Below are positions 2,141 through 20,554 of a stretch of DNA of 64,000 bases, one piece after another (positions within the stretch are counted from its first letter, which is position 1; every line of letters begins with the position of its first letter). Location of the stretch: NCBI RefSeq assembly GCF_014199945.1, contig NZ_JACHOR010000003.1, positions 186,001 through 250,000 of the forward strand, written 5' to 3'. The position numbers were made by a program, and so were the translations under genes. This stretch comes from Brevundimonas variabilis. Lineage in GTDB: Bacteria > Pseudomonadota > Alphaproteobacteria > Caulobacterales > Caulobacteraceae. The notes under the pieces were generated by a model that saw only the letters and a program-made list of their open reading frames with translations, did not search any database and was not told the origin of the DNA.

Positions 2141-3040
2141 ATGACAGACATGCCCCAAAAATCCGCGATCGATGTCTGCATCTGTACATTTCGACGTGCC
2201 AGCCTGAGCGTAACGCTCGAGTCAATTCGCGAACAGACCGGCTGGCTTGGGCCAGTCAGGATCATTGTTGCCGATAATGACGACACGCCATCTGCACTGC
2301 CACTCGTAGAAGCGGCGCGTCAGACTGGGCTGATCATTCATTACGTCCATGCACCAGCTCGAAACATTTCGATTGCCAGGAATGCTTGTCTCGCAGCGAC
2401 GGAGGCTCCGCTTGTTGCCTTTATCGATGACGATGAGGTTGCCCACACAACCTGGCTGGATGAGCTGGTGGCCGCGCTCAACGCCGATCCCCGCCTCGTC
2501 GCTGTCTTTGGGCCTGTGCGCGCACTGTACCCCGAACATGCGCCTGCATGGGCCCGGAAGGCGGACCTCCATTCTACCGAGCCCGTCATTACGCCCGCAG
2601 GGGTGGATACTGGGTATACCTCCAACGCCATGGTTCGGGCCAATGCGCTGGCCGGTCAGCGGTTCGACGAGGCCCTCGGTCGATCAGGCGGAGAAGACAC
2701 TGATCTGTTCACGCGCCTTCACAAGCAAGGGGCTCGCTATGGCGTCGCTCCGAAGGCCATCGTCTTTGAGGCCGTGGCTTCAGACAGGCTGAATACACGC
2801 TGGCTGGCGACCCGCGCCTTTCGCTCGGGCCAGACCCATGCCCGGCGCTTCTTGGCGGGCATCAACACGCGGACCAGAGCGTTTGCTGTTGCCGCAGCGA
2901 AATGCCTGTACTGCATGGCTTTGACCCTTCTGTATGCGGGTTCGCCCAGTCAGTGGCGGAGGGCGTGGGTTCGGGCATCACTGCATGCGGGCGCAGCAGC
3001 ACGATTGTGCGGGTTTCGAGAGGGTCGGCTTTATGGCTGA
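2141..3040 (+). CDS. Family 2 glycosyltransferase
   Basis: Predicted 299-residue GT-A-fold enzyme that adds a sugar from a nucleotide-sugar donor to the lipid-linked EPS intermediate at the inner membrane. The N-terminus VCICTFRRASLSVTLESI is the usual GT2 opening strand and helix; IVADNDD and FIDDDE (about residues 48 and 96) are the nucleotide-binding and DxD metal-binding positions; GEDTDLFTRL near residue 186 is the GT2 acceptor-side ED motif. Hydrophobic stretches near the C-terminus (AVAAAKCLYCMALTLLY) may lie on the membrane. Its stop overlaps the next gene by 8 bases, indicating translational coupling. Donor and linkage are not predictable. Confidence 0.85.
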   Translation: MTDMPQKSAIDVCICTFRRASLSVTLESIREQTGWLGPVRIIVADNDDTPSALPLVEAARQTGLIIHYVHAPARNISIARNACLAATEAPLVAFIDDDEVAHTTWLDELVAALNADPRLVAVFGPVRALYPEHAPAWARKADLHSTEPVITPAGVDTGYTSNAMVRANALAGQRFDEALGRSGGEDTDLFTRLHKQGARYGVAPKAIVFEAVASDRLNTRWLATRAFRSGQTHARRFLAGINTRTRAFAVAAAKCLYCMALTLLYAGSPSQWRRAWVRASLHAGAAARLCGFREGRLYG

Positions 3041-4097: not shown

Positions 4098-5434
4098 CTG
4101 TTCAGTGAACCTTTGTCTGCCGCCGCAGAACCTCGGCCTGCCCTGCCAAGGCGGATTTTTCTCGCGGCTGGATGAACGGCTGCCAGATACCCGGACGCCG
4201 CTGTGACCCCGATCAGGATCCCAGATGAGCCAAACGGACCCGTGATCGTCTCAACTTTGGCACGCGCAACAAGAACGACAGCTGACGCCGCGAGGAAAAT
4301 CCCGGCAGTTGTAGCCTGCGCTCCCATATTGCGGATAATCACGCGCGCCATGCCAAATCCCAGGCAAAGCAGCGTTAAGACCAACCCAGCAATTCCAAGA
4401 TCAACGGCCAACTCCCTGTAGGTGTCGTGAAAGTTGAATCCGGCACCAGAAGACAAACCCGCCCAGCGCAACAGGCCGATCGTTTCTGTCCCAGACCCAA
4501 GCCAGGTGGATCGATACCCATATCCCAAAACAGGACGCGCGCTGATCATCTTGTCTGCGTGAGCCCAGAGATAGTCCCGGCCCGTCAAGCCGATGTCCTT
4601 GCCGAGAACGTCGACGACAAACCACTCATAAAGCCGAACGAGGTCGGACTGGATCAGCCATAGAGGCAGGGCAAACATCAGCACCATAACGCCCAACATG
4701 AGCTTGGATCCTGCCGGCAAACGAAACGCCAAGGCCAGGAGCAGAGCGGCCATGAGGAACAAAATGGTCGTTATGACAGCCCCGCTGGCGAAGGTGTAGG
4801 CCAGCACGAACGCTGCAAAAGCCGATGCCGGCAAAGCAAGCAGTCGTATCCAGCGCGCTTCCGTTGTCGAGAAAGCCGTCATCACAGCACTGCAGACTGC
4901 GAGTTGGCAAAGCTGCCCCATCTCGTTCTTGGATCCCAGGACGCCGATGAGAACCGGGCCTTGCGGCGAGCCGCCCTGGCGACCGGAGATGAGGCAGAGC
5001 AAAAGCACCAGCAAGGTGCTGAAGAACACGATCCTGAGAAATGTTTTTGGGGTCGTCACGCTGGCTAGGGTGACGGCCGCCGCGAACGTTATCGCCAATT
5101 GCGTGCCATATCGGAAAGATATCCCTGGCTCGGTCGACCATAAAGCCGACAAGGGTGCCAAGGCCGCTACCAGCAAAATCGGCCAACAGCGGAACAGACC
5201 TGTGATTACCGTGAGAGGCGCTAGGGCGACGATGCCCATCGTCGCCGCCATCATGAGCAAAGGTGCAATGGGACCGAGCAGGCTCAACCAGGATGCCGTA
5301 AACAGCAGGTATCCGCAGGCAATAATCAGTCCATTCTTGGCACCAATGTGCGGACCAGCCGCAGCGGGGCGGACAAAACGCTTTCCCCTCGCCAGTGGCA
5401 CGTCGACGGGACTGAAGGAAATGGCAGGCCTCAT
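4058..5434 (-). CDS. O-antigen ligase / Wzy-type EPS polymerase (first copy)
   Basis: Predicted 458-residue polytopic inner-membrane protein with about ten hydrophobic segments, of the O-antigen ligase/polymerase superfamily (ExoQ-like), which joins lipid-linked repeat units in the periplasm. The diagnostic part is the large periplasmic loop: SARPVLGYGYRSTWLGSG, then NFHDTYRELAVDLGIAGLVL, where the conserved histidine follows the Wzy_C pattern. The C-terminal ~40 residues are polar and read through the 3' end of the convergent glycosyltransferase gene, so this tail is probably dispensable. The start is shared with the divergent control region 5435-5653. A second homologue lies at 16840-18291. 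Confidence 0.85.
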   Translation of the reverse strand: MRPAISFSPVDVPLARGKRFVRPAAAGPHIGAKNGLIIACGYLLFTASWLSLLGPIAPLLMMAATMGIVALAPLTVITGLFRCWPILLVAALAPLSALWSTEPGISFRYGTQLAITFAAAVTLASVTTPKTFLRIVFFSTLLVLLLCLISGRQGGSPQGPVLIGVLGSKNEMGQLCQLAVCSAVMTAFSTTEARWIRLLALPASAFAAFVLAYTFASGAVITTILFLMAALLLALAFRLPAGSKLMLGVMVLMFALPLWLIQSDLVRLYEWFVVDVLGKDIGLTGRDYLWAHADKMISARPVLGYGYRSTWLGSGTETIGLLRWAGLSSGAGFNFHDTYRELAVDLGIAGLVLTLLCLGFGMARVIIRNMGAQATTAGIFLAASAVVLVARAKVETITGPFGSSGILIGVTAASGYLAAVHPAARKIRLGRAGRGSAAADKGSLNSQRPAPAAASRRT

Positions 5435-5653
5435 GCCGAAGCCTTAGAACTGACGAACCTATCCATCAAGCCGATACTCCAGTCGCAGATATTGGAGGCG
5501 TGGAAGCAGGGATGCTTTTCCTTGGCATCAACCACGTGCGCCGGGTAAGTTCTTAGGGAGCATGAGGTCGCCGACGGTGGCACTCTGTCAAGGTGCTGAC
5601 AGCCGGTTTATGCGGCTTTGTGTTGTTCGACCACGGTGTTAACAAAGCCGCAA

Positions 5654-6577
5654 ATGTCTCCGCTCGTCAGCGTCATAATGCCGGCCCGAAACGTCGAGCG
5701 GTATATCGATACAGCCATCACGAGTGTGCGCGGGCAAAGCCTCGGTTCGTTCGAGTTGATTGTCATCGACGACGGATCCTCAGACCAGACGGCCCGGATT
5801 GTCGAAAGGCACTGCGCAAAAGACAGCCGTGTCCGTCTCATCTCTGGAAAAGGCCGCGGTCCAGGGGCCGCACGCAATCTGGGATTCGCGTGTGCAACCG
5901 GGCGCTGGCTTGCCGTAGTCGATTCAGATGACGAAATTCTGCCCGACAGGTTGGCAACACTCGTAGACGCTGCAGCCAACAAGGCTCATCTCGTTGCAGA
6001 CAACCTGGTCGCCTTTTACGACGATGGGCGCACGCCGCATGCCTGGCTCAATGGGAGTTCCTGGGAGCAGGCCCATGTCATCTCGCTGAAAGCCTTCCTG
6101 CTGGCAGGGATAGAGGGCGATGCCACAGATCAACCTGGCTACCTCAAGCCCCTTTTCGACAGGCTCTGGCTAGAGCAACAAGGCCTTCGATATGACGAAT
6201 CCCTGACGATCGGAGAAGACTACGATCTGGTGGCGCGCGCGCTGGCGCAGGGTGCAATCTACCAGTTCATTCCTGAAGCGGCTTATCGCTATCGTCGGCA
6301 TTCCGCGTCCACGTCGCACCGGATCACGCCGGCACAACTGGAGGCCATGATCGGTGGGTTCGAACGACTACGGACCAGCCTCTCGGAGAATGAAGCGTCA
6401 GCTCTGGATCGACGCGTCTCGAGCCTGGTTCTTGATCAGAGGTTTCTCGGCATCGTGGAAGACACGAAGGCCGGTTCGGTTCTGACGCTCTTCAAGGCCT
6501 TCCAGGACCCGGGTTTACGCAGCCGACTGTTCCGAGCCGCAGCTGGCGGGCTCGCGAGGCGTCTCCGCGGCTCTTGA
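5654..6577 (+). CDS. Family 2 glycosyltransferase, ExoO-like
   Basis: Predicted 307-residue GT-A glycosyltransferase similar in layout to ExoO of succinoglycan synthesis. The N-terminus reads PLVSVIMPARNVERYIDTAI; the metal site is VVDSDDE near residue 95; a later GYLKPLFDR and IGEDYDLVARAL (about residue 190) carry the ED acceptor motif. The same KPL-x-DR and GEDY-x-L signature occurs in the enzyme encoded at 15875-16843, so the two are paralogues. The ATG at 5654 is chosen because it begins just before the conserved first strand; an in-frame TTG at 5618 would add a cysteine-rich leader. It is alone on its strand, between a divergent polymerase and a convergent operon. Confidence 0.85.
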   Translation: MSPLVSVIMPARNVERYIDTAITSVRGQSLGSFELIVIDDGSSDQTARIVERHCAKDSRVRLISGKGRGPGAARNLGFACATGRWLAVVDSDDEILPDRLATLVDAAANKAHLVADNLVAFYDDGRTPHAWLNGSSWEQAHVISLKAFLLAGIEGDATDQPGYLKPLFDRLWLEQQGLRYDESLTIGEDYDLVARALAQGAIYQFIPEAAYRYRRHSASTSHRITPAQLEAMIGGFERLRTSLSENEASALDRRVSSLVLDQRFLGIVEDTKAGSVLTLFKAFQDPGLRSRLFRAAAGGLARRLRGS

Positions 6578-6646: not shown

Positions 6647-7636
6647 TCAGGGGCGGCGGCTCATCCGCTCCCGCCAAAAGCCGATCGACCATCCGAGATG
6701 CATAGCCATTGCGGCAAAGCCAGACAGCAATCCGCACAGGCTTGGCCCTGCCGTCACGCTGGCCACCACGCCCCCGACAATCGAAGCCGTAGCCCAGGCC
6801 AGAGCGGGAAACGCGAGGAGTGCTGAGACCGGCAAAACGGTCGCCAAAGGGATCCCAATGACGGCAGCGACCACAGCAGGCAGAACCAGAAGAGGAAGGG
6901 CCTGTCTTGGCCGCAGACGTTGCCGATGGAGAGCCAGCGTTCTGGCACGCCCACGGCCGTAGTTCACATACTGCCGGAACAAGGGCGCGATTGCTCGGCG
7001 GGGTAGATATTCGATTGCCAGTTCAGGCTCCAGCCAGATCCGGCCCCCACTTTTCGTCAACCGAAGATCGAACTCTGCATCCTCGTTATGAGAAAAGCTC
7101 TCGTTGTAGCCACCGAGCGCGAGAAAACGATCGAGCCGGAAAAGGGCGTGGTGACCATGGTCAACCCACCCCCCCTGCCCGCCCATTCGGTGGGCCGCAC
7201 CGCCCGTGCCGATGCGACTGTTCTGGGCGGTCGCAGCCGCTCGCTGGAAACACGTTTCAGCAACCGTTTTCATCGGGACGACAACTGAGTCCGCTGCGTG
7301 CTTCTGGGCAATGAATGCCAGCCCAGCGGCATAGTCATCCGGGTAGCGCGCATGTGCATCGATACGAATGAGGTACTGACGCCCGGATCCATATTGGTGC
7401 GCTGCTGCGTTCACACCGGCGGACTGAAGCCGGGCGGGATTGTGCAGAAGCCGGATGTTCCGGGCGAGCGCCCCCTGCTTAAGGACTATATCCTGGCTGC
7501 CGTCCGTGCTGCCGCCATCGGCCACGATGATCAAATCGTCGGGGCTATTCTGCGAACGAAGTTGTTCCAACAGATGCGGCAAGTGCCGGGCCTCATTCAG
7601 GCACGGGATAACGATCAGGAGACCATCGGCACTCAT
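6647..7636 (-). CDS. exoA: Family 2 glycosyltransferase with membrane anchor, ExoA-like
   Basis: Predicted 329-residue enzyme resembling succinoglycan ExoA, which adds a glucose to the lipid-linked intermediate. The N-terminus LLIVIPCLNEARHLPHLL, then DGGSTDGS (UDP binding), IRIDAHARYP (DxD-equivalent, DAH), and SHNEDAEFDLRL (acceptor ED motif) are typical. The C-terminal third has two or three hydrophobic helices (ALPLLVLPAVVAAVIGIPLA and following), as in ExoA proteins. Its ATG overlaps the stop of the upstream ExoL-like gene by 4 bases, so it is the third gene of an operon that starts with the nucleotidyltransferase at 9923. Confidence 0.82.
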   Translation of the reverse strand: MSADGLLIVIPCLNEARHLPHLLEQLRSQNSPDDLIIVADGGSTDGSQDIVLKQGALARNIRLLHNPARLQSAGVNAAAHQYGSGRQYLIRIDAHARYPDDYAAGLAFIAQKHAADSVVVPMKTVAETCFQRAAATAQNSRIGTGGAAHRMGGQGGWVDHGHHALFRLDRFLALGGYNESFSHNEDAEFDLRLTKSGGRIWLEPELAIEYLPRRAIAPLFRQYVNYGRGRARTLALHRQRLRPRQALPLLVLPAVVAAVIGIPLATVLPVSALLAFPALAWATASIVGGVVASVTAGPSLCGLLSGFAAMAMHLGWSIGFWRERMSRRP

Positions 7637-8769
7637 GCTGCGACACGTCCTGCCAGTGCCGAAACGAGACTCCGACAGGTCTCCCGATCGCAGATCAGGT
7701 CAGACCTCGGTATTTCAGTCGCCGCCACCACCAAGGCTTCGTATTCGAGCGGAGAGAGTTGAACCAACCGGTCCCTGAGGTCGCTCGCATTGTCCAGGAC
7801 CAGTCCTGCTCCCCTCGCCTCCAGCCATCTGGCCGTCTCCAAGCCAGCCAACGCGATAATGGGGCGATTGAATGCCCCACCTTCATAGAGGCGGTTTGGC
7901 AAGAGCCACGAGGAGTTCAATCCCTCTTCGAAAAAATCAATCGCCCAGACAAAATGAACCTGCTCGTAAAGGCTTGGAAGATCGGCCGCCGTGTACTCGC
8001 CGCCAAAGCGGATGCCGGGCAGGTCGGCGACCTCCCTTTCAAAATCGTCAAAGACCGCAGGGGACGGCCGGCCGGATATCAGAACTTCAATCCGGCCGGC
8101 TGATGCCGCTGCCATTTCAGAAAGCAGAGTCAGAGACTTGCGGCACCGAAGCATGCCAAACCATCCGACAATCCAGGGGGGTGCTGCCATGGGAGCGGTG
8201 TTCGGCATCGCACCCTCACCTTCCAGTGACACCAGCCGGTTCTCGATCAGGAGGCAATTGGCCTGGCCAGGATACTGGACGCTGAAATAGTTTCGTTCGA
8301 ACGCGGGTGAGCTGACAATCACGCGCGAAACTCGCTTTAGCAGGAACTGTTCGAGGCTCCTCAGGCATCGGGAAGCGAGGCCGGTCCCCAACATCAAACG
8401 GTGAACATCAAGGCACTCGTAATGCAGCGGTACCCGCGAGCGCCCTAGGAGCGCTACCCAAGCCAGCAGCAACATCTCAAGGTTCCTGGCGATCACGATA
8501 TCCGCATCGCGGACAAGATCGCGGAGGCGGACAGGCTTCAGGATCCAGGAAGCAACCTTCACAGCCCTCTGTGCAAAGGCACCATCGGCTGTGGTCCCTA
8601 ATCCGAAGACCTTGGGGTCACTGGTGGCGATCGGTCGGCGATGAAATCCGGCCGTCAGCACCTTTGCGCCCCCTGCTTCGAGCATGATCACTCTCCGACG
8701 GACTGCCGGATCAGTGAGGTCAGGAACGAGATAGGCGATCGAAGACAGCACTGGCGTTTCGACACTCAC
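7633..8769 (-). CDS. exoL: Glycosyltransferase, ExoL-like (GT-B)
   Basis: Predicted 378-residue glycosyltransferase that resembles ExoL of succinoglycan synthesis in length and layout. The N-terminus has IAYLVPDLTDPAVRRRVIML; a middle segment ARNLEMLLLAW and HYECLDVHRLML fits this family, and WIVGWFGMLRCRKSLTLL begins the C-terminal domain, followed by FFEEGLNSSWLLPNRLYEGG, which corresponds to the donor-binding loop. It overlaps its neighbours by 4 bases on both sides (start with the nucleotidyltransferase stop, stop with the exoA-like start), so all three are translationally coupled. An alternative is that it acts on the lasso product rather than EPS; the sequence does not decide. Confidence 0.75.
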   Translation of the reverse strand: MSVETPVLSSIAYLVPDLTDPAVRRRVIMLEAGGAKVLTAGFHRRPIATSDPKVFGLGTTADGAFAQRAVKVASWILKPVRLRDLVRDADIVIARNLEMLLLAWVALLGRSRVPLHYECLDVHRLMLGTGLASRCLRSLEQFLLKRVSRVIVSSPAFERNYFSVQYPGQANCLLIENRLVSLEGEGAMPNTAPMAAPPWIVGWFGMLRCRKSLTLLSEMAAASAGRIEVLISGRPSPAVFDDFEREVADLPGIRFGGEYTAADLPSLYEQVHFVWAIDFFEEGLNSSWLLPNRLYEGGAFNRPIIALAGLETARWLEARGAGLVLDNASDLRDRLVQLSPLEYEALVVAATEIPRSDLICDRETCRSLVSALAGRVAA

Positions 8770-10153: not shown

Positions 10154-10285
10154 ATGACCAAGACCTACGAAGCCCCGAAAGTGACCGACCTCGGCACCTT
10201 CGAAGAAATCACCCAGTCGGCCTTCACCGGCACGCGCGGCGACTTCCGCGCTCTGCAAGGCCAACTGCAGCCCATCCTGAGCTAG
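10154..10285 (+). CDS. Lasso peptide precursor
   Basis: A 43-residue precursor, too short for ordinary gene callers. The leader (residues 1-21) carries the YxxP-type recognition motif (Tyr5, Pro8), then Leu13-Gly14, and the penultimate Thr20 required for leader cleavage. The core (residues 22-43) would start SAFTGTRGD: Ser22 supplies the alpha-amine and Asp30 the side-chain carboxylate, giving a nine-residue macrolactam, with a 13-residue tail that ends QPILS. An RGD sequence falls at the end of the ring. The C-terminal serine matches substrates of lasso-cluster HPr-kinase homologues. Ser at core position 1 is less usual than Gly; a ring from Ala23 to Asp30 is possible but would put Thr20 at -3. 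Confidence 0.88.
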   Translation: MTKTYEAPKVTDLGTFEEITQSAFTGTRGDFRALQGQLQPILS

Positions 10286-10333
10286 GACGGCTTGTTCCCA
10301 TCGGCTTGCGCCGGGGGGATGGCACTGAGTAGG

Positions 10334-10363
10334 AAAACGGGGCTTAACAGCCCCGTTTTTTTT
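10334..10363 (+). terminator. Intrinsic terminator/attenuator after the lasso precursor
   Basis: An 11-base stem, AAAACGGGGCT (10334-10344) pairing with AGCCCCGTTTT (10349-10359), loop TAAC, with the T-tract continuing to 10363. It lies 49 bases after the precursor stop and 48 bases before the B1 start, all on the same strand. Partial read-through would make precursor mRNA exceed maturation-enzyme mRNA, as is common in RiPP clusters. Confidence 0.85.
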
Positions 10364-10410
10364 GGCATCAGTTTTGCTTTGTCCTGCGCAACGCAAACAA
10401 GGCGCTCGAA

Positions 10411-10698
10411 ATGACCATGTCTAAGACGTACGAAAAAAAACCTTCCGTCGTTGCTTGTGAGCTGGATGGAGGATCCGTGTTGCTCGATCTTGATACGAGC
10501 CGATATTTCGGGCTCAATACTGTTGGTCTCGTTGTTTGGGAGCATCTGTCGATGCCGCAAACGATCGGGCAACTGTGCAAGATCGTCGAAACCACGTTTG
10601 ATGTTTCCGAAGACATCTGTCGTCCTGATCTGGAACAGCTTATGGCGCAGCTTCTTGAGCGTAAACTCGTGACGTCGCAGGTTGGGTCCGCTGTCTAA
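10411..10698 (+). CDS. Lasso B1: PqqD-like leader-binding protein (RRE)
   Basis: Predicted 95-residue RiPP recognition element of the PqqD family, which binds the leader and presents the precursor to the B2 protease. The family layout is visible: a strand ending GGSVLLDLDTSRYFGLN, then VGLVVWEHLSMPQTIGQLC, then DICRPDLEQLMAQLLERKLV. The start is ATG 10411, with AAGGCG 7 bases upstream, or ATG 10417. Its first residues (from Met3, MSKTYEKKP) closely resemble the first residues of the precursor leader (MTKTYEAPK), which may be chance or a mimic of the bound leader. Its 3' end overlaps the B2 frame by 17 bases. Confidence 0.88.
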   Translation: MTMSKTYEKKPSVVACELDGGSVLLDLDTSRYFGLNTVGLVVWEHLSMPQTIGQLCKIVETTFDVSEDICRPDLEQLMAQLLERKLVTSQVGSAV

Positions 10699-11098
10699 CA
10701 CCTTGGCAAACCGATTTGGCTGGCGCGTAGTCTCTCTTTTCTGCCTTGCGGTCTTTGTCGTGGCCCTCAAGGTTTTTCCTTACAGAACCATCCAGCGATA
10801 CATGCCCAGGGGCGGGCTGACGGTTGCTCCGCGGTGGCGTCAGGTCCAGATCTTCTCTCATGTCGACTGGGCATCCCGGAAGGTGCCGGGCGCAACCTGC
10901 CTTCCCCAGGCACTGACGGGTTATCTTTTCCTTGCCCTTCTGAAGCTGGACTGTCGTATCCGGATCGGTGTGGCCAAGTCGGCTAAGGGCGGGTTCAGGG
11001 CTCACGCGACGCTGATGAGCGGTGACGCCATAATTCTTGGCGACAGTCCTGACCGGGACGAATTCGTCACACTGACCGAACTGAGACCAGGCCAATGA
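10682..11098 (+). CDS. Lasso B2: transglutaminase-like leader peptidase
   Basis: Predicted 138-residue cysteine protease that removes the leader after Gln21. The fold is the transglutaminase-like core of lasso B2 proteins: nucleophile Cys73 in ATCLPQAL, His108 in FRAHATL, and an acidic residue of GDAIILGD (Asp115 or Asp121) for the triad. A hydrophobic N-terminal helix (VVSLFCLAVFVVALKVF) may attach it to the membrane. The only start that keeps the helix is TTG 10682, within the end of B1, indicating translational coupling. The stop overlaps the cyclase ATG by 4 bases. Confidence 0.87.
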   Translation: MGPLSNTLANRFGWRVVSLFCLAVFVVALKVFPYRTIQRYMPRGGLTVAPRWRQVQIFSHVDWASRKVPGATCLPQALTGYLFLALLKLDCRIRIGVAKSAKGGFRAHATLMSGDAIILGDSPDRDEFVTLTELRPGQ

Positions 11099-12957
11099 TC
11101 CGGGGCATTGCCGGGCTGGTGTCCACAAACGGGACGCCCGTGGACGCTGACCATGTGGAGCGCATGCTCACAGCCATGGGGAAGCGCACGGACAAGATCC
11201 ATGGACTTTATCAGTCCAGGCTCGCGGCGTTTGGCCTGGGGGGACCAGTCTCTGATACATGGCCGATCAAGTGCAGCGGCGCGAATCTTGTGTCGATTGC
11301 CGACTTGCGGCTCGATAATCGGAATGAACTGGCTGAAATCCTTGGCTGCAACGCCAGTGACGACGCCGTATTGTCAAACGCCTATCAGACATGGGGCGCC
11401 GACTGCGTCACTCACATTCACGGCGATTTCTCTTTTGCCTTCTGGGATGAAGACAAATCAGAGCTTTTTCTTGCCCGTGATAGATTCGGCGTCAGACCGT
11501 TGGTCTATACCATTGGCGACGGATGGTTTGCTTTTGCGTCAGAGGTCAAGGCCCTTCTGGCCCTGCCCGAGGTTGCCCGCGAAAGCCCGGAACTGCGTAT
11601 TGCCGAGTTTCTTTCCGGCAGGATGCCTCAGGTCAGTGAGACCATGTTCACCACCATTCATCGCCTTCCGGGCGGGCACCAGATGGTGGTACGAGCCGGT
11701 AGCAACGAAGCCACGCCCGCCCCCTATTGGACGTGGCAACTCCCGCCACAAACCATTTCCACCACGCCCCACACGACTCTGGCAGAGCTCTTCACGGACG
11801 CCGTCAATCGTCGAGCGCCAAAGGACAGCCCGACTGCCGTTACGCTCAGCGGAGGGTTGGACTCGTCTGCCGTGGCAGCGACCATGGCCAAGTATCGAGG
11901 CCACGGGGACCCGCCAGTGTCGACCTTCTCCTTGGTCTTCGACAAGTATCCCGATCTATCGGAGCGCAGCTATATCCAGTCACTCCTCGACCTCGGGAGC
12001 TATGACCCGCATTTTCTTGATCTTGAAACCGAAGACCCTTTCGAGAATTTCTCCGAACTGCTTTCTCGTCAGGACGGCCTTTTTCAAACGGGAGGACTCG
12101 GCATGGGCAGGTCACTGCTCGAGGGACTCCCGCCTGGGACCGTGGTTCTCGATGGACATGGCGGCGACGAGGTCATTTCGCATGGCTACGAGCGCCTCGA
12201 TGAACTCGCCGAGCAGGGACGATGGCGTCAATTCTGGACCGAGGTGAAGGGTGCGAGCCTCATGGCGGGCGCCAACCCTATCAGGGCCCTGGTCGATTTT
12301 TACGCTCTCTACGGTCGGGGCGGATGGTTGGTCAAAAAGCTGCTGAAGCGTTTCGCCCGCCGATCCGATCTTGCGAGCGCAGCCCCATCTATCCTGAGCG
12401 ACCGACTGGCGACGAAGCTGGCTGGATCTGCTGCGGACAGTGTCGACGGAGGGCCCCGGCCATCCGCCAGAGCCAAACACATGGCCGTCCTGGGCTGGCC
12501 GGGCCAGCAGCATGTCCTCGAAGTTCTGGACAGGGATGCTGCGGGACGGGGCCATGAAGCCCGGTCTCCGTTCTGGGACGAGAGACTGATCGAATTCATG
12601 CTGTCCGTCCCCGCCAGCGAGAAGCTGAAAGGGGGCCACACGCGTCGCATCATGCGAGATGCGATGGCAGACCGATTGCCCGACTTAATCCGCTGGCGCC
12701 AGGACAAGCATGATTTCAATCATCATTTTGCGCGAGGCCTGAAGTCCAGCCCAGCCGCTTCAGCCCAGCGGTTTCAGGATGAAGCTGACCGGTTGTCGCG
12801 GTACATGAACCTGCCCGTCATCGCCAGTGCTCGCGAACGCATCATCCAGTCGGGGGCCAATGCCGACGGAAACGATGTGAACATTCTTTGGCGAGCCACC
12901 GCTGTTGCGGAATGGTTATCCTACGCAGATCAGAACGGGATCAGGGTCGTCGAATGA
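11095..12957 (+). CDS. Lasso C: asparagine-synthetase-like macrolactam synthetase
   Basis: Predicted 620-residue ATP-dependent cyclase that adenylates the Asp30 side chain and forms the amide with the core N-terminus. The N-terminal glutaminase-like domain starts MIRGIAGLV, so the catalytic Cys2 of true asparagine synthetase is missing, as expected for lasso cyclases. The synthetase domain has the PPi-loop SGGLDSSAVA at residues 252-261 and a later DGHGGDEVISHGYERL. It overlaps B2 by 4 bases at its start and the kinase by 4 bases at its end. Length and domains agree with known lasso C proteins. Confidence 0.93.
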   Translation: MIRGIAGLVSTNGTPVDADHVERMLTAMGKRTDKIHGLYQSRLAAFGLGGPVSDTWPIKCSGANLVSIADLRLDNRNELAEILGCNASDDAVLSNAYQTWGADCVTHIHGDFSFAFWDEDKSELFLARDRFGVRPLVYTIGDGWFAFASEVKALLALPEVARESPELRIAEFLSGRMPQVSETMFTTIHRLPGGHQMVVRAGSNEATPAPYWTWQLPPQTISTTPHTTLAELFTDAVNRRAPKDSPTAVTLSGGLDSSAVAATMAKYRGHGDPPVSTFSLVFDKYPDLSERSYIQSLLDLGSYDPHFLDLETEDPFENFSELLSRQDGLFQTGGLGMGRSLLEGLPPGTVVLDGHGGDEVISHGYERLDELAEQGRWRQFWTEVKGASLMAGANPIRALVDFYALYGRGGWLVKKLLKRFARRSDLASAAPSILSDRLATKLAGSAADSVDGGPRPSARAKHMAVLGWPGQQHVLEVLDRDAAGRGHEARSPFWDERLIEFMLSVPASEKLKGGHTRRIMRDAMADRLPDLIRWRQDKHDFNHHFARGLKSSPAASAQRFQDEADRLSRYMNLPVIASARERIIQSGANADGNDVNILWRATAVAEWLSYADQNGIRVVE

Positions 12958-13940
12958 GCTTATCTGACAGCCACCAAAGCCCCATCCCTCAGTCGGAACA
13001 GATCGCTGTGCATCATCACTATCGTGCGTTCGGTTTGAACATTCGCTCGACCATGCCGATTGCCGAACTCATGGCCGCGGCCATAGATCCTGCCGACGCG
13101 GTTGACCTCGAAATCGTTCAGGAGGCTGGCAAATGTCCGTTCGGGGTGGAGGATAACCCGTTCGATTTTGCGCTTCACGAAACTCCGGATGGGACAGATT
13201 ATCTCTACTGGCTCCAGGTGGGAACATTCCGGATCGTAGGCAATCGCCGGATTGAATGTGACCTCAATCCGGGCGTCGGCCCTGACCTTGCGTCCTTGCC
13301 GCTCCTCGGGATTGTCATGGCCGTTCTCCTGCATCGCCGTGGCATGATGGTGCTGCATGGGAGCGCCGTGAAGATCGGCGAAAAGGCTGTGGTTTTCCTG
13401 GGTGACAAGGGAGCCGGAAAGTCAACGACGGCGGCGTCACTGGCATCTGCTGGACGCGCCATCCTCACAGACGATGTTGTCGCGCTGAATCGCATGTCCG
13501 ACGGCAGCGTCTGCCTCCTGCCCGGGCATGCTCAGGTGAAACTGTCTCAGGAGGCAACCGATCACATGCGGCTGCCTGAATCGCGGGTCCTCGACAGACC
13601 TTTTGAAACCTATGACAAGCACCGGTACGTGTTTGAAGCGCCGTTCGACACAACACCCATATCCGTCTCGGATATCTTTATCCTGGAGCGAGGAGACCTG
13701 GGAGCAGAAGCCCTGACGAGCAGCGCAGCCCTGACGTCCCTGATGCGATACTCCTATCTCGCTCGATTTGGATCAGAAATGTTCAAAGGTGCGCAGGCTG
13801 CCGAGTTTCTCCACTGGTGTGCTGCCGTTACGCGCGCCATTCCGGTCAGCAGACTGACAGTGCCATCCGATCTGGCCGGTCTTGATCGGCTGGACGGATT
13901 TCTGCGGGACAGATCGGGTGAAGCTACGGCCCAGCCATGA
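12954..13940 (+). CDS. Lasso K: HPr-kinase-like precursor kinase
   Basis: Predicted 328-residue protein homologous to the C-terminal domain of HPr kinase. HGSAVKI at 135-141, the Walker A motif GDKGAGKST at 150-158 and LTDDVVAL at 171-178 are the expected motifs. Lasso-cluster homologues (paeninodin PadeK, ThcoK) phosphorylate the hydroxyl of the C-terminal serine of the precursor, and the precursor here ends in Ser43. The N-terminal 120 residues form the extra domain typical of these lasso kinases. The ATG at 12954 overlaps the cyclase stop (ATGA); the 3' end overlaps the exporter start in the same way. Kinase family is clear; the Ser43 target is inferred. Confidence 0.87.
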   Translation: MSLSDSHQSPIPQSEQIAVHHHYRAFGLNIRSTMPIAELMAAAIDPADAVDLEIVQEAGKCPFGVEDNPFDFALHETPDGTDYLYWLQVGTFRIVGNRRIECDLNPGVGPDLASLPLLGIVMAVLLHRRGMMVLHGSAVKIGEKAVVFLGDKGAGKSTTAASLASAGRAILTDDVVALNRMSDGSVCLLPGHAQVKLSQEATDHMRLPESRVLDRPFETYDKHRYVFEAPFDTTPISVSDIFILERGDLGAEALTSSAALTSLMRYSYLARFGSEMFKGAQAAEFLHWCAAVTRAIPVSRLTVPSDLAGLDRLDGFLRDRSGEATAQP

Positions 13941-15763
13941 GCGTCGAGACCGGCATCCATAGCGCTTCCGGCCAGGCCAAACGCATCTGGCGGGTCGCAA
14001 AGTTTGTTTGGCCATTCACGCGGTCACGGGCCGTCCTGTCTCTGGGACTGCTGTTTGCTGCCGGACTGACCGAAGGTTTTTCGATCCTGCTCGTGATACC
14101 AATCCTTGCAGGGCTGATGCCCGGTGCCACCGAAGTGGATATCTCCATCAGCTCAATGCTGCCTGGCATTTCCGACATACCCGACATTCAGATCGGTCTT
14201 CTGCCACTCTTGAGCTTGCTCGTGATTGCTGTTGCGCTTCAGGGTGCACTCGCGCGTTTGAGCAATATTGCGATTGTCGACACGACCCTCAATGCTGCCC
14301 ATCTGATGCGGACCCAACTTTTCGAAACCGTCGGATATGCCCGATGGCAGGCGATCATGATGGGAAGGCATGCAGACATCACGCACGTCATGACGATGGA
14401 TGTTGATCGCGTCCATGTCGTTCTGAGTTGTCTGCTTTTCTCGGTTCAGGCCATCGTCATGCTGACGCTCTACATAGCGCTGGCACTCTTCGTCTCACCG
14501 ACCATGACTGCTGCAGCGGTGATTTTTGGCGGGCTGTTCGTAATCTTCCTGCATCCGCTCCGGACCTTTGCGTCAAGATACGGTGAAAGGCTCAGTAAGC
14601 AACGACAGGCCCAGTACCGCACGATTGGCGAATTTCTAAACGGGCTGAAGGTTGTCAAAAGCCTGAATGCCGAAGATCGGTATGTCGAGGCTTTCACGGG
14701 CAATTCTTCGCAGATAACAGGCGACCTGAAGAGACTGGCTCGCGTCAAGGCTCTGCCGCCCTATCTGTTCCAGATTTTCAGCGCTGTGGGTGCTGCCGCA
14801 TTCATATATGGCGCTGTGGTTTTCGTGAAACTGCCGATCGAACAGATAGCGGTGCTGCTTTTCCTTTTCATGAAAATCGCTCCGAGGTTCGCAAACCTTC
14901 AATCCGATTATCAGGAGATCATCATCAACGTTGGCGGATATGACAACGTTGCGGCCGTGATCGCCGGCTACAGGAATGATCAGGACGTTCCGTCAGCAAC
15001 GGAAGATGGCAAGCTGGGCCTGCGGAACGAAATCGCATTTGACGACGTCACGTTCCGCTACAACGCGGATACTGCTCCCGTTCTCGACGGCGTCAATTTC
15101 GTTGTCCCTGCTCGACAGATCACGGCCCTGATTGGTGCCTCCGGTAGCGGCAAGAGCACTGTTGCGGATCTGATGATGGGTCTCCTTGAACCGACTGAAG
15201 GTTCGATCCGGATCGATGGTGCCGATTTGACCAGCACTCTTGGGCGGGCTTGGCGCAGCGGCGTCGCCTACGTGCCCCAGGACGCCTATCTGGCAAATGA
15301 TACGGTGCGGGCGAATCTCCTGTTCGCCCGTCCCGACGCATCAGAAGCTCAAATGTGGCACGCCCTCGATCAGGCCCAGGCGGGCGATCTCGTCCGCAAA
15401 CTGACGGCCGGCCTGGAAACCGAGGTTGGCGAAGACGGACTTCGCCTGTCAGGCGGAGAGCGACAGCGGATTGCCCTCGCAAGGGCATTGCTGACAACGC
15501 CGGAGGTTCTCATTCTTGATGAAGCCACCAGCGCGCTGGATTGGCAAAATCAGGCCCTTATCGCGCACGCCATTGAGTCCTTGAGGGGCACAATGACGGT
15601 CATCACGATTGCACACCGGCCTTCAATGATCGGCTTCGCTGACTGGGTCGTGGCGATTGTCGACGGGAAAGTTGTTGAAACCGGGCCCTTTTCAGCCTTC
15701 GCGGCCAATGAGGACAGCCAACTGTCTCGCCTGATCGCGGGTGAAAACGCCAGCACGCAGTAA
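13937..15763 (+). CDS. Lasso D: ABC exporter (fused permease-ATPase)
   Basis: Predicted 608-residue half-transporter that should export the mature peptide and give self-immunity. Six membrane spans occupy about residues 25-320. The ATPase domain has Walker A GASGSGKST, a Q-loop in AYVPQDAYLAND, the signature LSGGERQRIALARALL, Walker B VLILDEATSALD and the H-loop ITIAHRPS. There is no N-terminal C39 peptidase domain, consistent with a separate B2 protease. It is the last gene of the A-B1-B2-C-K-D series and overlaps K by 4 bases. No isopeptidase or TonB receptor gene, usual in exporter-less caulobacterial lasso clusters, is next to it. Confidence 0.92.
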   Translation: MSVETGIHSASGQAKRIWRVAKFVWPFTRSRAVLSLGLLFAAGLTEGFSILLVIPILAGLMPGATEVDISISSMLPGISDIPDIQIGLLPLLSLLVIAVALQGALARLSNIAIVDTTLNAAHLMRTQLFETVGYARWQAIMMGRHADITHVMTMDVDRVHVVLSCLLFSVQAIVMLTLYIALALFVSPTMTAAAVIFGGLFVIFLHPLRTFASRYGERLSKQRQAQYRTIGEFLNGLKVVKSLNAEDRYVEAFTGNSSQITGDLKRLARVKALPPYLFQIFSAVGAAAFIYGAVVFVKLPIEQIAVLLFLFMKIAPRFANLQSDYQEIIINVGGYDNVAAVIAGYRNDQDVPSATEDGKLGLRNEIAFDDVTFRYNADTAPVLDGVNFVVPARQITALIGASGSGKSTVADLMMGLLEPTEGSIRIDGADLTSTLGRAWRSGVAYVPQDAYLANDTVRANLLFARPDASEAQMWHALDQAQAGDLVRKLTAGLETEVGEDGLRLSGGERQRIALARALLTTPEVLILDEATSALDWQNQALIAHAIESLRGTMTVITIAHRPSMIGFADWVVAIVDGKVVETGPFSAFAANEDSQLSRLIAGENASTQ

Positions 15764-15874: not shown

Positions 15875-16843
15875 CTAGCTGGGCGTACGCAGGCGACCCA
15901 CGGTTCTCAACCAGCCCTGCTCCGCGAGCTGTACTGCCAGATATCCAGCAACCTGCGCCGACGTCAGGGTCGAGATCGCCCCGGCCACGTCATGTGACTT
16001 GACGGCCTCGATCAGACGCCGCCACTGGAGTCGTTGGTCAATGCCGAGGTAATGCCGCTGCAGGGCGCTGCGCGCCTCCTGCGACAAGCCATCGAGTTGC
16101 ATCAGGTTCCGGTCGCTGTTCCGCAGCGCAAGAAGGTCGTCGATGGAGTGGCGACCACTCAGGGAATCTTCCCGTGTGACAGCGACATAACCCAGAGGTC
16201 CTGCCAGACGCAGTTTCCCCCCTGCCGCAAGCACTCTTGCATAAAGGTGGTAGTCTTCACCAAGCCGCAAGCCGGTGTCGTATGCGAGGCTGTTCTTGGC
16301 GAGAAAACCACGGTCCATCAGCGGTTTGATGAAGCCAAGTTCCTGCCGGTACTGTCCGCGGCGACTGATGTTTCCGGCTATGAATGAGGCAAGGTCGATC
16401 TCGGTCAGGGCTCCGACTTGCGGATCAGGCGTCAGGGCCTCGGGCTCCTCGTCGAGGGTGACCCGGATCAGCTCATCTGCGATCATTTCCACGTCGCCCG
16501 AGACAGCGAGCAGGCGGCCGATACGGCCCGGCAGGAAATAGTCGTCTGAGTCCAGCACACAGACCCATTTCGCCGTACACAATGCCAGTGCCCGGTTCCG
16601 GGCAGCGGCCGGGCCGCCATTGACCTCCTGGCGCAGAACCTTCAACCGCGAGGTTCCGTCATCAGCCTGAAGCGCCACGTTCGCGGTGTCGTCGCTGGAA
16701 ACATCATCGATGACCCAGACCTCGGAGACCTCGGGCTCGGCCAGTGCGGACCGGACGGCCCGCGCGATCGTGGTCTCGGCGTTATAGGCCGCAATCATGA
16801 CGGCGACGGTGGACGGGACGTTGGCGTGCACTTCAGGCTTCAT
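15875..16843 (-). CDS. Family 2 glycosyltransferase, ExoO-like (second copy)
   Basis: Predicted 322-residue GT-A glycosyltransferase. Conserved points: VAVMIAAYNAETTIARAV at the N-terminus, VIDDVSSDDT, NGGPAAARNRAL, the metal site VLDSDDYFLPGRI, then LGFIKPLMDR and LGEDYHLYARVL. The last two segments match the enzyme at 5654-6577, marking the pair as paralogues. The ATG at 16843 overlaps the polymerase stop by 4 bases; longer in-frame readings run through the polymerase gene in another frame and have no GT features. It is the distal gene of the minus-strand run that begins with the outer-membrane protein or secreted protein near 22310. Confidence 0.87.
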   Translation of the reverse strand: MKPEVHANVPSTVAVMIAAYNAETTIARAVRSALAEPEVSEVWVIDDVSSDDTANVALQADDGTSRLKVLRQEVNGGPAAARNRALALCTAKWVCVLDSDDYFLPGRIGRLLAVSGDVEMIADELIRVTLDEEPEALTPDPQVGALTEIDLASFIAGNISRRGQYRQELGFIKPLMDRGFLAKNSLAYDTGLRLGEDYHLYARVLAAGGKLRLAGPLGYVAVTREDSLSGRHSIDDLLALRNSDRNLMQLDGLSQEARSALQRHYLGIDQRLQWRRLIEAVKSHDVAGAISTLTSAQVAGYLAVQLAEQGWLRTVGRLRTPS

Positions 16844-18291
16844 CCGTGCCGAACGGCTCGTCCCGCGCGTTTGCCCGGGAGCTCTCGACGAATAGGCTTC
16901 TGGGTATCGTGTTTCGTCTCTCGTGGCGAGACACCCGTGCGACGTTGTTGATGTCGAATTGGACCTTTGGCGTCGATACCGGCCCAGGACGTAGCCGCCC
17001 TGTAGACTAGCCCCAGAAGAAAGGCCCAGACCAGAGCAACTGAGTAAATCTGGGCCGGGTAGTCGACCATGCCCTGAAGCAGCATGAACCCCGAAACCAT
17101 GAACAGTGGAAGCATGGCTGTACGCATGTCTGGCCTCAGACGAGCAACGGTGACAAGCACAAGCCATACGCCGCCGATCAGGGCCATAAGGAGTCCAACG
17201 ACGCCCGCCTCGAGGATCCATTGCAGTGCCAGATTGTGGACAGCCCGCACGTTCCACATCACGCCATCATTTTCCGGCGTCAGGAGAAGCCGGGAAATCC
17301 GCGGGACGGTTCCCAGTCCCTGACCAAACACCGGGTTTGCCGACACGGCTTCGGCATAGGTGGCCATTATGACGCTGCGGTTCGTAACCTCCTCTCCGAC
17401 CGACCCCATCCGAAGGAGAACGGCGCTCGCACTGTAGGCAACGACCAGCAGACCGCCGAGGACGAGCCCGGTCAGAAGCAGCCTCCTGCCCCGCAAGACG
17501 GAACGGTGAGTCAGCCAGGTCCAGACCCGCCTGCCCGCCCAGATCGCCCCAAGGAGCGCCATGATCAGGATCGCGGAACGGGAGGCTGTAAGCAGCAGCG
17601 TCCCGGCCAGGATAACGCCCGCCGCTACTGAGGTCAGCAATCCGGCATTCAGCGCCCCCTTGCGGGACTGAAGCTGTCGGTCGATCAGGGTCATCCAGCA
17701 CAGCAGTCCAAGCGAGAGGACGCAGGCGGCGACATTGGGGCTGACAAAGGTCCCCGTCAGGCGCGCGATCCCGTCTACGGACCGGGCCGACATGGCAAAC
17801 AGGATCAGCGCCCAGAGAGCCCAGCCGACGGTCAGCCAGACAAGGCGGTGCAGGGTGCTCGTCATGCGCTCGGCCGTCGAGGCATGGCGGTAGGCGAGAA
17901 GGAAGATCACCAGCAAGCCGAGAAGCTTGACGATCTCGACCCAGGTCGCCTCGGGATCGATCGACAGCGTATTCAGCCCCGCCCGCTCGGCAATCCACCC
18001 CGACGCCAGCCAGTCCGAGCCTGGAATAACAGACACCACCGCGAGAACGAGCAGGCCAGCGAAGGCCACAGCGGGCCCTCGCAAATCGCGCCAGTACGCC
18101 GTGGTCAGCCCCACCCGCCCGCGCACGAAGCCATAAGCCCCGATCAGGGCGATCACAGCCGTGAGGAGCGTCGCTTCAAACTGTCCGCTGGCACCACCCG
18201 CAAGATGTGCTCCTGTGACAAGCACTGGCACCGACAACGTCAGTGCATGTTCCTTCAAGCTCTCTGCCAACGTTCGGGTCGAACGAGACAT
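16840..18291 (-). CDS. O-antigen ligase / Wzy-type EPS polymerase (second copy)
   Basis: Predicted 483-residue inner-membrane protein with ten or more hydrophobic spans. The Wzy_C region is clear: LLTASRSAILIM, a large periplasmic loop with ANPVFGQGLGTVPRIS, then VHNLALQWILEAGVVGLL, with a conserved His near residue 395. It probably polymerises or ligates the EPS repeat unit in the periplasm. The ATG at 18291 (MSRSTRTLAESL) is chosen because it is 10 bases after the stop of the upstream tyrosine autokinase; the 30-codon in-frame extension overlaps that gene and has a biased Ser/Thr/Arg composition. It differs strongly from the polymerase at 4058-5434. Confidence 0.87.
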   Translation of the reverse strand: MSRSTRTLAESLKEHALTLSVPVLVTGAHLAGGASGQFEATLLTAVIALIGAYGFVRGRVGLTTAYWRDLRGPAVAFAGLLVLAVVSVIPGSDWLASGWIAERAGLNTLSIDPEATWVEIVKLLGLLVIFLLAYRHASTAERMTSTLHRLVWLTVGWALWALILFAMSARSVDGIARLTGTFVSPNVAACVLSLGLLCWMTLIDRQLQSRKGALNAGLLTSVAAGVILAGTLLLTASRSAILIMALLGAIWAGRRVWTWLTHRSVLRGRRLLLTGLVLGGLLVVAYSASAVLLRMGSVGEEVTNRSVIMATYAEAVSANPVFGQGLGTVPRISRLLLTPENDGVMWNVRAVHNLALQWILEAGVVGLLMALIGGVWLVLVTVARLRPDMRTAMLPLFMVSGFMLLQGMVDYPAQIYSVALVWAFLLGLVYRAATSWAGIDAKGPIRHQQRRTGVSPRETKHDTQKPIRRELPGKRAGRAVRHG

Positions 18292-18301
18292 GGTTATGCT
18301 T

Positions 18302-20518
18302 TCAGGCCGTGTAGTACTTCTTGACGGACGAGTAGTAGTAGCCCGGGTCGCCATAGCCATAGCGGGACTGCTGGTTGACATCGACCTGGGTCAGCACCAC
18401 GCCCGCGACATAGGCATCGGACTGCTCCAGGGCCTTGAGAGCGGCATCGGCCGCCTTCGCCGGCGTCTTGCGCCAGCGCGTGAGGAAGACCACCGCATCG
18501 GATCGGCTGGCGAGCACCCGGGTCTCGGCGATGGCGAGCACCGGAGCGGTATCAAGAATGACCAGGTCAAACTCGGCACGGAGCTGGTCGAGCAGCTTGC
18601 CCATGGCGTCGGTGTTGAACACTTCCTGGGGCGTGAACTCGCGATAGGCGATGGGCAGAACCCAGGCACCCGAATTTTCGCCCTGCAGAAGCGCGTCCTT
18701 CAGGGCGACCTTGCCATCGAGCACATCGAGCAGGCCTACCTCGGCTTCGACCCCGAGGAGCTTGCTGACGTTGCGGCGACGGATATCACAGTCCACGATC
18801 ACCACACGCGCGCCAGCCTTGGCACCAGAGATCGCAAGGCAGACCGCTGTTGTTGTCTTGCCCTCTCCCGGAAGGGCCGAGGTGATGGCGATGACCTTCA
18901 CCGGATCCCCTACCCGCGCGTACAGGATCGAGGTTCGCAGATTACGGAACGCTTCGGCAAACCCCGACAGGGGGCGCGCAATCAGATAATCGGTTGGCAG
19001 GAGCTTGCGGTCCTTGCCTTCTGCAATCGACATCAGCAGCGGGATGGACCCGAGGGTCTGGAGCGAGAGGCGGCTCTCGATATCCTCAGCGGTCAGCAGA
19101 CCGTCGTCCAGCATCTCGACGAAAACAACGACGATCAATCCGGCCGCCATGGCCAGGATGAAGCCCAGCGCGAGGTTGACTGGCACATTAGGCGATGTCG
19201 GGCTGCCGTTGGCACGCGCTTCGGAAACGATCCGGCTGTCAGCAGTGGCACCACCCGCTTGGGCAGACGTTTCCTGATAGCGCTCCAGCAAGCCCTCATA
19301 GAGGGTCCTGACAGACTCGGCATTGCGCTCCAGCTCGTTGAGCCGGACGCTGGCGGCATTGTTACCGGCCAGCGTGCCCCGCGCCCGTCCGAGCGTCGAC
19401 TGCACCGAAGCCGTACGATCACGAGCGACCTGCGCGCGAGCCTCGAGGTTGGAGATAACCCGCCGGATTTCAGCGGCAATCTGGCCATCGATCGCAGCCA
19501 GTTCCTGGCGGGCACGGATGAGCTCGGGATAGCGTGGACCGTAGTTGGCTTCCAGGTCAGCAACACGCGTTGCGACCGTAGAGCGCTGCCCGCGCAGCTG
19601 GGAGACCACCGAAGACTGCAGGGCCTCACCCACATCGTCACCGATCGAGCCCCGGGCGAGCTGGTTCCGGGCTGTCCGAAGACGCGCTTCTTCGACCGCC
19701 TGATCCGCCCTCGCGGTCGCGAGTTGCTGGTTGTAGGTCGAGATTTCCTGCTCGGTCAGGGTCGTCCCGGACGAGCTCAGAAGGTTGTTTGCGACACGGT
19801 ACTGTTCGACCGCGGTCTCGGCCGCAAGAACCTCGGCACGCAGCTCGTTGAGTCGGGTGCTCAGGAAGGTGTTCGCCTGATTGGTGGCCGAGTATTTGGC
19901 TTCAACCTGGTTCAGGATGTACTGCTCGGCAAAGGCATTGGCGATCCGCGCCGACTTCTCGGGATCAAGCGATGTAAAGCCGACACCGACAATGTAGGTC
20001 AGACCCGACCGTCGCACGCTCAGCCCGCCTCGAAGTGCGGATGTCGCTCGCTCGCGGCCGGCTTCGATGTCCTCAGGCGTGCGGGGGAGCTCCGGCCGTG
20101 GCAGGGTCTGGCCCTGAAGACGCGCAAACAGCTGGTCGAGGCTCGACGGGGGCCTGAGGGCCCAGTTGAACTCGGGGTCATTCTCGAGGCGAAGATTGGT
20201 GGCGACCTGGCGTGCCAGTCCGCGCGATTGCAGGACTTCGACCTCGGTATCGATCACGCCGGACTCGATCGGCAGTTCCGACAGGACCTCGGTCGAGGCC
20301 ATGACGTTTTCCTGGCGTGTATTGAACATCACGCGGGCTTCAGACGAATAGCGCGGCGTCGCCTGCATCGTCACCAGCAGGGCAACGAGGAAGATCGCGA
20401 GCGCAATGCCGCCGAACAGCCGCATGCGCCTGCGAAAAATCGCCAGCAGATTTCGCAGGTTGAAGAGATCGCTGCCACCGCGAGCGGACGCAGTGGAGCT
20501 CTCGTTCATCATCGTCAT
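18302..20518 (-). CDS. exoP: Wzz-type chain-length regulator fused to a tyrosine autokinase (BY-kinase)
   Basis: Predicted 738-residue inner-membrane protein controlling EPS chain length and export (ExoP/Wzc class). Spans near residues 34-54 and 425-447 bracket a long periplasmic coiled-coil region. The C-terminal cytoplasmic kinase has Walker A SALPGEGKTT (about 545), Walker A' VVIVDCDIRR and Walker B LVILDTAP, and ends in a tyrosine cluster (YGYGDPGYYYSS, then YY near the end), the expected autophosphorylation tail. It lies directly upstream of the polymerase (10-base gap) and 36 bases downstream of the outer-membrane beta-barrel gene. All hallmark motifs are intact. Confidence 0.93.
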   Translation of the reverse strand: MTMMNESSTASARGGSDLFNLRNLLAIFRRRMRLFGGIALAIFLVALLVTMQATPRYSSEARVMFNTRQENVMASTEVLSELPIESGVIDTEVEVLQSRGLARQVATNLRLENDPEFNWALRPPSSLDQLFARLQGQTLPRPELPRTPEDIEAGRERATSALRGGLSVRRSGLTYIVGVGFTSLDPEKSARIANAFAEQYILNQVEAKYSATNQANTFLSTRLNELRAEVLAAETAVEQYRVANNLLSSSGTTLTEQEISTYNQQLATARADQAVEEARLRTARNQLARGSIGDDVGEALQSSVVSQLRGQRSTVATRVADLEANYGPRYPELIRARQELAAIDGQIAAEIRRVISNLEARAQVARDRTASVQSTLGRARGTLAGNNAASVRLNELERNAESVRTLYEGLLERYQETSAQAGGATADSRIVSEARANGSPTSPNVPVNLALGFILAMAAGLIVVVFVEMLDDGLLTAEDIESRLSLQTLGSIPLLMSIAEGKDRKLLPTDYLIARPLSGFAEAFRNLRTSILYARVGDPVKVIAITSALPGEGKTTTAVCLAISGAKAGARVVIVDCDIRRRNVSKLLGVEAEVGLLDVLDGKVALKDALLQGENSGAWVLPIAYREFTPQEVFNTDAMGKLLDQLRAEFDLVILDTAPVLAIAETRVLASRSDAVVFLTRWRKTPAKAADAALKALEQSDAYVAGVVLTQVDVNQQSRYGYGDPGYYYSSVKKYYTA

Positions 20519-20554
20519 AATCTTACCGTCTTACCGCTAGCTGGACGCAGAGCA

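What the first reader, a model, noticed from the sequence alone, without database searches (positions are those of the whole stretch)
10280..13940. Precursor ends in serine, matching a C-terminal phosphorylation and possible hexosylation route
HPr-kinase-like lasso enzymes (PadeK, ThcoK) phosphorylate the C-terminal serine, and the nucleotidyltransferase of the pseudomycoidin cluster is reported to add a hexose to that phosphate. Here the last residue is Ser43, the kinase Walker A loop is intact and the nucleotidyltransferase is adjacent. The expected product has +79.97 Da, and +162.05 Da more if hexosylated (about 2424.20 and 2586.25 by hand arithmetic).
Basis: partly seen in the sequence, partly recalled or inferred. 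Interest (0 to 1): 0.75.

Follow-up and report, generated by a model that had tools for sequence, protein, structure and literature searches.

The report
Phosphorylated lasso peptide in polysaccharide locus
This bacterium carries genes for a knotted "lasso" peptide whose last amino acid is very probably tagged with phosphate, and in its relatives these genes keep turning up inside the gene region that makes the bacterium's sugar coat, a link worth testing.

Summary
A 43-residue lasso precursor (10154-10285) ends in Ser43 and heads a B1-B2-C-kinase-transporter run. The kinase has an intact P-loop and the His-Lys-Asp-Asp set. The nucleotidyltransferase is the next gene but divergent, on the minus strand.

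C-terminal phosphorylation is well supported by comparison: 86 of 86 precursors recognised in 87 loci end in Ser, and among 41 unique cores only Asp9 and that Ser are invariant. In kinase-less lasso clusters of the same bacterial family, 0 of 19 precursors picked by eye end in Ser. Hexosylation is only possible: the nucleotidyltransferase is intact and tied to the kinase, but has a polymerase-beta-type fold and may add a nucleotide instead.

The cassette sits in an exopolysaccharide locus: polysaccharide genes flank 9 of 9 close relatives and 79 of 80 named loci, against 0 of 23 other lasso loci. A 2026 paper reports such a link in Bacilli; my searches showed none for Alphaproteobacteria. A new member of a known kind with an informative setting.

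The parts
10154..10285 (+). Lasso precursor A, 43 aa: leader 1-21, core 22-43 (Ser1-Asp9 ring), ends in Ser43
10331..10362 (+). Strong hairpin with T run between A and B1 (probable partial terminator)
   Evidence: RNA fold -19.6 kcal/mol, z -4.25; not listed by the consensus scan
10411..10698 (+). B1, leader-binding PqqD-like protein
   Evidence: PF05402, 55.1 bits, cut-off 23.4
10682..11098 (+). B2, leader peptidase (start codon as listed, uncertain)
   Evidence: NF033537, 56.9 bits, cut-off 33; PF13471
11095..12957 (+). C, asparagine-synthase-like macrolactam cyclase
   Evidence: PF00733, 156.4 bits; best NCBIfam hit a lasso cyclase model, below its cut-off (409.8 of 525)
12954..13940 (+). 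K, HprK-like peptide kinase (ATG at 12954 overlaps the stop of C)
   Evidence: PF07475 below cut-off (27.8 of 33.3)
13937..15763 (+). D, ABC exporter
   Evidence: PF00005 and PF00664
8766..9923 (-). N, nucleotidyltransferase NTP_transf_5, divergent from A
   Evidence: PF14907, 120.9 bits; model and fold
7633..8769 (-). GT4-like glycosyltransferase, overlaps the end of N by 4 bases; a general polysaccharide gene
6647..7636 (-). GT2 glycosyltransferase, overlaps the end of the GT4 gene by 4 bases
1145..6577 (.). Left polysaccharide flank: initiating sugar transferase, two GT2, Wzy-like, one ORF without a Pfam match
15875..21913 (-). Right polysaccharide flank: GT2, Wzy-like, Wzz/tyrosine-kinase-like, beta-barrel porin

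Best explanation
This is a lasso peptide cluster of the phosphorylated (paeninodin/pseudomycoidin) type. Inferred route: B1 binds the leader and presents the precursor to K, which phosphorylates the hydroxyl of the last residue, Ser43 (core Ser22), once or several times; B2 cuts after Gln21; C closes the Ser1-Asp9 ring around the tail; D exports the product. N adds a further group to the tail phosphate, a hexose as reported for PsmN or a nucleotide. Shown here: gene content, motifs, conservation of the terminal Ser, predicted folds, and the exopolysaccharide setting. Inferred: every chemical step and its order. Because the cassette lies in exopolysaccharide loci, the product probably acts at the cell surface in connection with the polysaccharide; that is the weakest step. 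The confidence given is for C-terminal phosphorylation by K; for hexose as the further group I would say about 0.4, for a polysaccharide-linked role about 0.5.
For: Complete cluster and motifs. Terminal Ser in 79 of 79 precursors of 80 named loci, in the 9 close relatives and in 2 of 2 found later; only Asp9 and that Ser invariant in 41 unique cores. Four cores with a six-residue longer tail still end in Ser. Kinase-less clusters: 0 of 19. K and N co-occur: the 10 genomes with close K are the 10 with N at E 1e-30 or better, of 299. Polysaccharide genes flank 9 of 9 close relatives and 79 of 80 named loci against 0 of 23 other lasso loci.
Against: No product is known. Related kinases BsfK and LppK phosphorylate Ser3, so the terminal Ser need not be the site. 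K is below Pfam's cut-off for HPr kinase. N was not found on the short contigs L131, L135, L151, L186 and L187. L187 shows only a weak GT2 match as polysaccharide neighbour. Most named loci are from one genus.
Confidence: 0.82

Rival explanations
1. K phosphorylates an internal Ser or Thr of the core (Ser1, Thr4 or Thr6), as BsfK and LppK do at Ser3, and the terminal Ser is kept for another reason, such as recognition by the cyclase or the exporter.
For: BsfK and LppK modify Ser3 (PMC10368454; PMC13381572). Thr/Ser is common at core position 6 (31 of 41) and at -3 from the end (33 of 41).
Against: No internal position has Ser/Thr in all 41 unique cores; position 3 has it in 9 of 41 and is Phe in the window. 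Kinase-less clusters of the same bacterial family lack the terminal Ser (0 of 19).
Confidence: 0.12
2. N transfers a nucleotide (or, like FKRP, a phospho-group from a CDP donor) to the phosphorylated tail, rather than a plain hexose; any sugar comes later from the neighbouring glycosyltransferases.
For: Polymerase-beta-type fold with MenT1, ANT(2''), LnuA and FKRP among the matches (Z 14.2, 12.8, 11.7, 8.7); DxD and a third Asp invariant in 23 of 23. In the window N overlaps two glycosyltransferase genes.
Against: PsmN is reported to be needed for hexose on the phosphorylated Ser of pseudomycoidin (PMC9266682). A shared fold shows no reaction. The two glycosyltransferases are general polysaccharide genes: 19 of 289 genomes without close K have the GT4.
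Confidence: 0.45
3. The exopolysaccharide setting is an accident of insertion into a variable locus and says nothing about function.
For: Gene order around the cassette differs between genera and polysaccharide loci exist without it: six GT4 loci of genomes without close K were read and have no lasso cassette.
Against: 9 of 9 close relatives against 0 of 23 other lasso loci of the same bacterial family have polysaccharide genes within about 9 kb. The setting recurs in several orders and is reported for Bacilli (PMC13381572).
Confidence: 0.35

Closest known systems
Paeninodin (PadeK), ThcoK and SyanK lasso clusters
   Same: Split B1/B2, HprK-like kinase with His-Lys-Asp-Asp, precursor ending in Ser; SyanK is from an alphaproteobacterium (PMC9266682 passages)
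   Different: YxxP leader here, against WxxP in Bacillota paeninodin-like leaders (PMC13381572 passages); divergent N. SyanK cluster itself not compared
Pseudomycoidin cluster (PsmK, PsmN)
   Same: Kinase plus nucleotidyltransferase, terminal Ser
   Different: Bacillus; sequences not available here; hexose on the product not shown here
bsf cluster of Bradymonas (BsfK, BsfN)
   Same: Proteobacterial A, B1, B2, C, D, K, N; same kinase motif residues
   Different: BsfK modifies core Ser3, Ile at -2, core ends in Asp; here Thr at -2, Phe3, Ser at the end
LPP and paeninodin-like clusters in capsule loci of Bacilli (PMC13381572)
   Same: HprK-like kinase, NTP transferase and leader-binding protein inside polysaccharide loci; role unknown
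   Different: Alphaproteobacteria here; LPPs are linear, use a signal-peptidase-type leader peptidase (not searched for here) and are phosphorylated at Ser3

Membership tests
Lasso peptide cluster with split B1/B2 | Precursor with YxxP leader, Thr at -2 and ring acid at core 7-9 | tested here: met
Lasso peptide cluster with split B1/B2 | B1, B2 and cyclase genes | tested here: met
   PF05402, PF13471, PF00733 over cut-off; NF033537 over cut-off; the NCBIfam cyclase model is below its cut-off
Paeninodin-type phosphorylated lasso peptides | Kinase with His, P-loop Lys and two Asp | tested here: met
   invariant in 25 of 25
Paeninodin-type phosphorylated lasso peptides | C-terminal Ser in the precursor | tested here: met
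Paeninodin-type phosphorylated lasso peptides | Phosphate on that Ser in the product | not testable with these tools
   needs mass spectrometry
HPr kinase (Pfam PF07475 as defined by its cut-off) | Score over 33.3 bits | tested here: not met
   27.8 bits; related fold by structure comparison
Pseudomycoidin-type glycosylation | Nucleotidyltransferase gene beside the cluster | tested here: met
   PF14907 over cut-off
Pseudomycoidin-type glycosylation | Hexose on the phosphorylated tail | not testable with these tools
   needs product or enzyme assay
BsfK-type ring phosphorylation | Conserved Ser/Thr at core position 3 | tested here: not met
   Phe in the window; Ser/Thr in 9 of 41 unique cores

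The most novel reading that the evidence does not exclude
The phosphoserine tail is a covalent link: N and the neighbouring glycosyltransferases join the lasso peptide to a glycan of the exopolysaccharide, so that these lasso peptides are built-in peptide parts (primer, cap or anchor) of surface polysaccharides in several orders of Alphaproteobacteria, and perhaps in Bacilli too.
Probability: 0.1. Interest if true: 0.85.

Novelty: new member of a known kind. Interest (0 to 1): 0.5.

Why it matters
The biological role of phosphorylated lasso peptides is stated as unknown (PMC13381572). A family in which the terminal Ser is invariant and the cassette lies inside exopolysaccharide loci, in cultured Mesorhizobium, Brevundimonas and Asticcacaulis, makes a surface-polysaccharide role testable by gene deletion outside the Bacilli, where the link was reported.

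Tried and rejected
A single-protein scan of genome contigs with K found nothing; an alignment of seven (A1) then gave 105 relatives, of which the tool kept 80. That scan used the pattern F[LM]GDK[GRM]AGK, so those P-loop letters are partly selected in the 80 loci; the His, the P-loop Ser and the two Asp were not in the pattern.

I first took the GT4/GT2 pair for part of the lasso cluster. Searches (GT4 also in 19 of 289 genomes without close K; six of those 19 read, all polysaccharide loci) showed it to be general polysaccharide equipment.

A strict K motif pattern missed 2 of 80 (L138, L143); both are in alignment A3 and keep the residues. In some searches Thr at -2 and an acid at 7-9 were required, so those features are partly selected; the last residue was not. 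Precursors (kinase-less) were picked by eye: 19 accepted in 14 of 23 loci, none ending in Ser; the candidates I dropped include one in L178 that ends in Ser. Precursors (distant kinases) were also picked by eye: 9 accepted in 9 of 18 loci, all ending in Ser; 8 dropped, 3 of them ending in Ser. The polysaccharide queries come from the window, so the window is left out of the 9 of 9. In that call the distant-kinase loci gave 3 of 18 with at least one polysaccharide gene and 2 of 18 with two (0 at the stricter limit). No sigma-70-like promoter was found by A. A sequence search of solved structures gave only a chance hit for N.

Later check: three further hits at order level. Of the two new ones both precursors end in Ser; L186 has clear polysaccharide neighbours, L187 only a weak GT2 match; neither showed N, both contigs being short or cut.
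Full report
Observation. The window holds a complete lasso cluster on the + strand: A 10154-10285, B1 10411-10698, B2 10682-11098, C 11095-12957, K 12954-13940, D 13937-15763, with overlapping ends from B1 to D. A ends in Ser43. The leader motif and Thr20 at -2 set the core as residues 22-43 and the ring as Ser1-Asp9. N (PF14907) is at 8766-9923 on the minus strand, divergent from A; its end overlaps a GT4-like gene by 4 bases, whose end overlaps a GT2 gene by 4 bases. A hairpin with a T run lies between A and B1 (10331-10362).

Source. G273 is of the window's genus. Its contig has the same length as a contig of Brevundimonas vesicularis NBRC 12165 (L111) and the same core. So the window is probably from a Brevundimonas (inference).

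Kinase. Pfam gives Hpr_kinase_C below cut-off (27.8 of 33.3 bits), NCBIfam weak HprK-related hits. A profile of seven relatives finds HprK structures (E 1.2e-6). The AlphaFold model (mean pLDDT 87.9) matches phosphoenolpyruvate carboxykinases (best E 1.4e-8) and HprK (E 8.2e-6). His135, Gly150, Lys156, Ser157, Asp173 and Asp174 are invariant in 25 of 25. A His-Lys-Asp-Asp set is described as essential for the known kinases (PMC9266682, passages), and the same residues matter in BsfK, apart from some of its glycines (PMC10368454, parts 1-5 of 6 read).

Terminal serine. Of 299 genomes of the family (the window's included), 26 have a K relative at E 1e-8 or better; 10 including the window's are close (E 4e-43 or better, the next 3e-27). 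The 9 others (L035-L043) each have a YxxP precursor beside B1 that ends in Ser. 79 of 80 have a recognised precursor and 79 of 79 end in Ser; L151 begins inside the cluster. With the window, L038, L040, L041, L042, L186 and L187 that makes 86 of 86 in 87 distinct loci. Most are one genus, so they are not independent. Among 41 unique cores only Asp9 and the last Ser are invariant. Four cores have a six-residue longer tail and still end in Ser. In kinase-less clusters of the same bacterial family 0 of 19 precursors accepted by eye, from 14 of 23 loci, end in Ser. In the more distant kinase group 9 of 9 accepted, from 9 of 18 loci, do.

Nucleotidyltransferase. The 10 genomes with close K are exactly the 10 with N at E 1e-30 or better, of 299; ten more have weaker matches. 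N is in 77 of 80 named loci, 76 on the strand opposite to K; the three without are contigs of 4.5 to 12.3 kb. Its DxD and a third Asp are invariant in 23 of 23. The model (mean pLDDT 91.1) has a polymerase-beta-type fold: MenT1 Z 14.2, rmsd 2.7 over 179; ANT(2'') 12.8; LnuA 11.7; FKRP 8.7. N is intact and tied to K, but its chemistry is open.

Setting. The window's flanks are an exopolysaccharide locus: initiating sugar transferase, several GT2, two Wzy-like, Wzz/kinase, outer-membrane barrel. With these as queries (E below 1e-20; stretches of about 11 to 21 kb), 9 of 9 close relatives have two or more such genes, against 0 of 20 lasso loci without close K (18 kb each), 0 of 3 other lasso loci of this genome and 2 of 18 distant-kinase loci (3 of 18 have one or more). 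Of 80 named loci 79 have one or more and 77 two or more; the exception, L135, is a 4.5 kb contig. Pfam on nine proteins of the Mesorhizobium ciceri locus shows UDP-glucose dehydrogenase, GT2, polysaccharide export protein and Wzy, beside N; three have no family and one is a hydantoinase. The GT4 gene is in all 10 close-K genomes and in 19 of 289 others; six of those 19 were read and are polysaccharide loci without the cassette. So the cassette is optional in such loci, but was nearly always seen within one.

Literature. [quoted passage not shown] BsfK modifies Ser3 (PMC10368454), as does LppK (PMC13381572, passages). PMC13381572 reports paeninodin-like clusters in capsule loci of Bacilli, roles unknown, a biofilm role being only speculation (passages). 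My ten searches listed no paper that I recognised as describing the link in Alphaproteobacteria; I judged listings by title and start of abstract except the papers named, and PMC9723273 (passages), which counts Erythrobacter lasso clusters and polysaccharide genes but in those passages does not connect them. The original paeninodin and pseudomycoidin papers were not held.

Verdict. C-terminal phosphorylation is very likely, hexosylation possible. It is a new member of a known kind; the repeated exopolysaccharide setting is the more interesting part.

Noticed in passing
L109, L128, L154 (about 7.2 kb), L159 (about 1.4 kb): Four Erythrobacter-type cores have two Cys (core position 4 and in the tail, LTCG...) and a six-residue longer tail, a possible ring-tail disulfide in a phosphorylated lasso peptide.
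   Followed up: no
L044, L048, L049, L050, L051, L052, L057, L060: The more distant kinase clusters have WxxP-type precursors with very short cores rich in Ser/Thr and ending in Ser (for example ...GSDGITSAS), perhaps an unusual small lasso group.
   Followed up: partly
L062, L063, L064 (own genome): Three more lasso leader peptidase genes in the same genome, each with one or two ordinary-looking precursors not ending in Ser and no polysaccharide neighbours.
   Followed up: partly
window 10331-10362: Strong terminator-like hairpin between the precursor gene and B1, which may keep the precursor transcript in excess.
   Followed up: partly
window 23433-31926: A C93 transglutaminase-like peptidase, a cell-wall hydrolase, a trypsin-like protease and two GH16 hydrolases follow the polysaccharide genes.
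   Followed up: no
window 2934-4097: ORF of 387 aa without a Pfam match that recurs in polysaccharide loci of G273 and G119.
   Followed up: no
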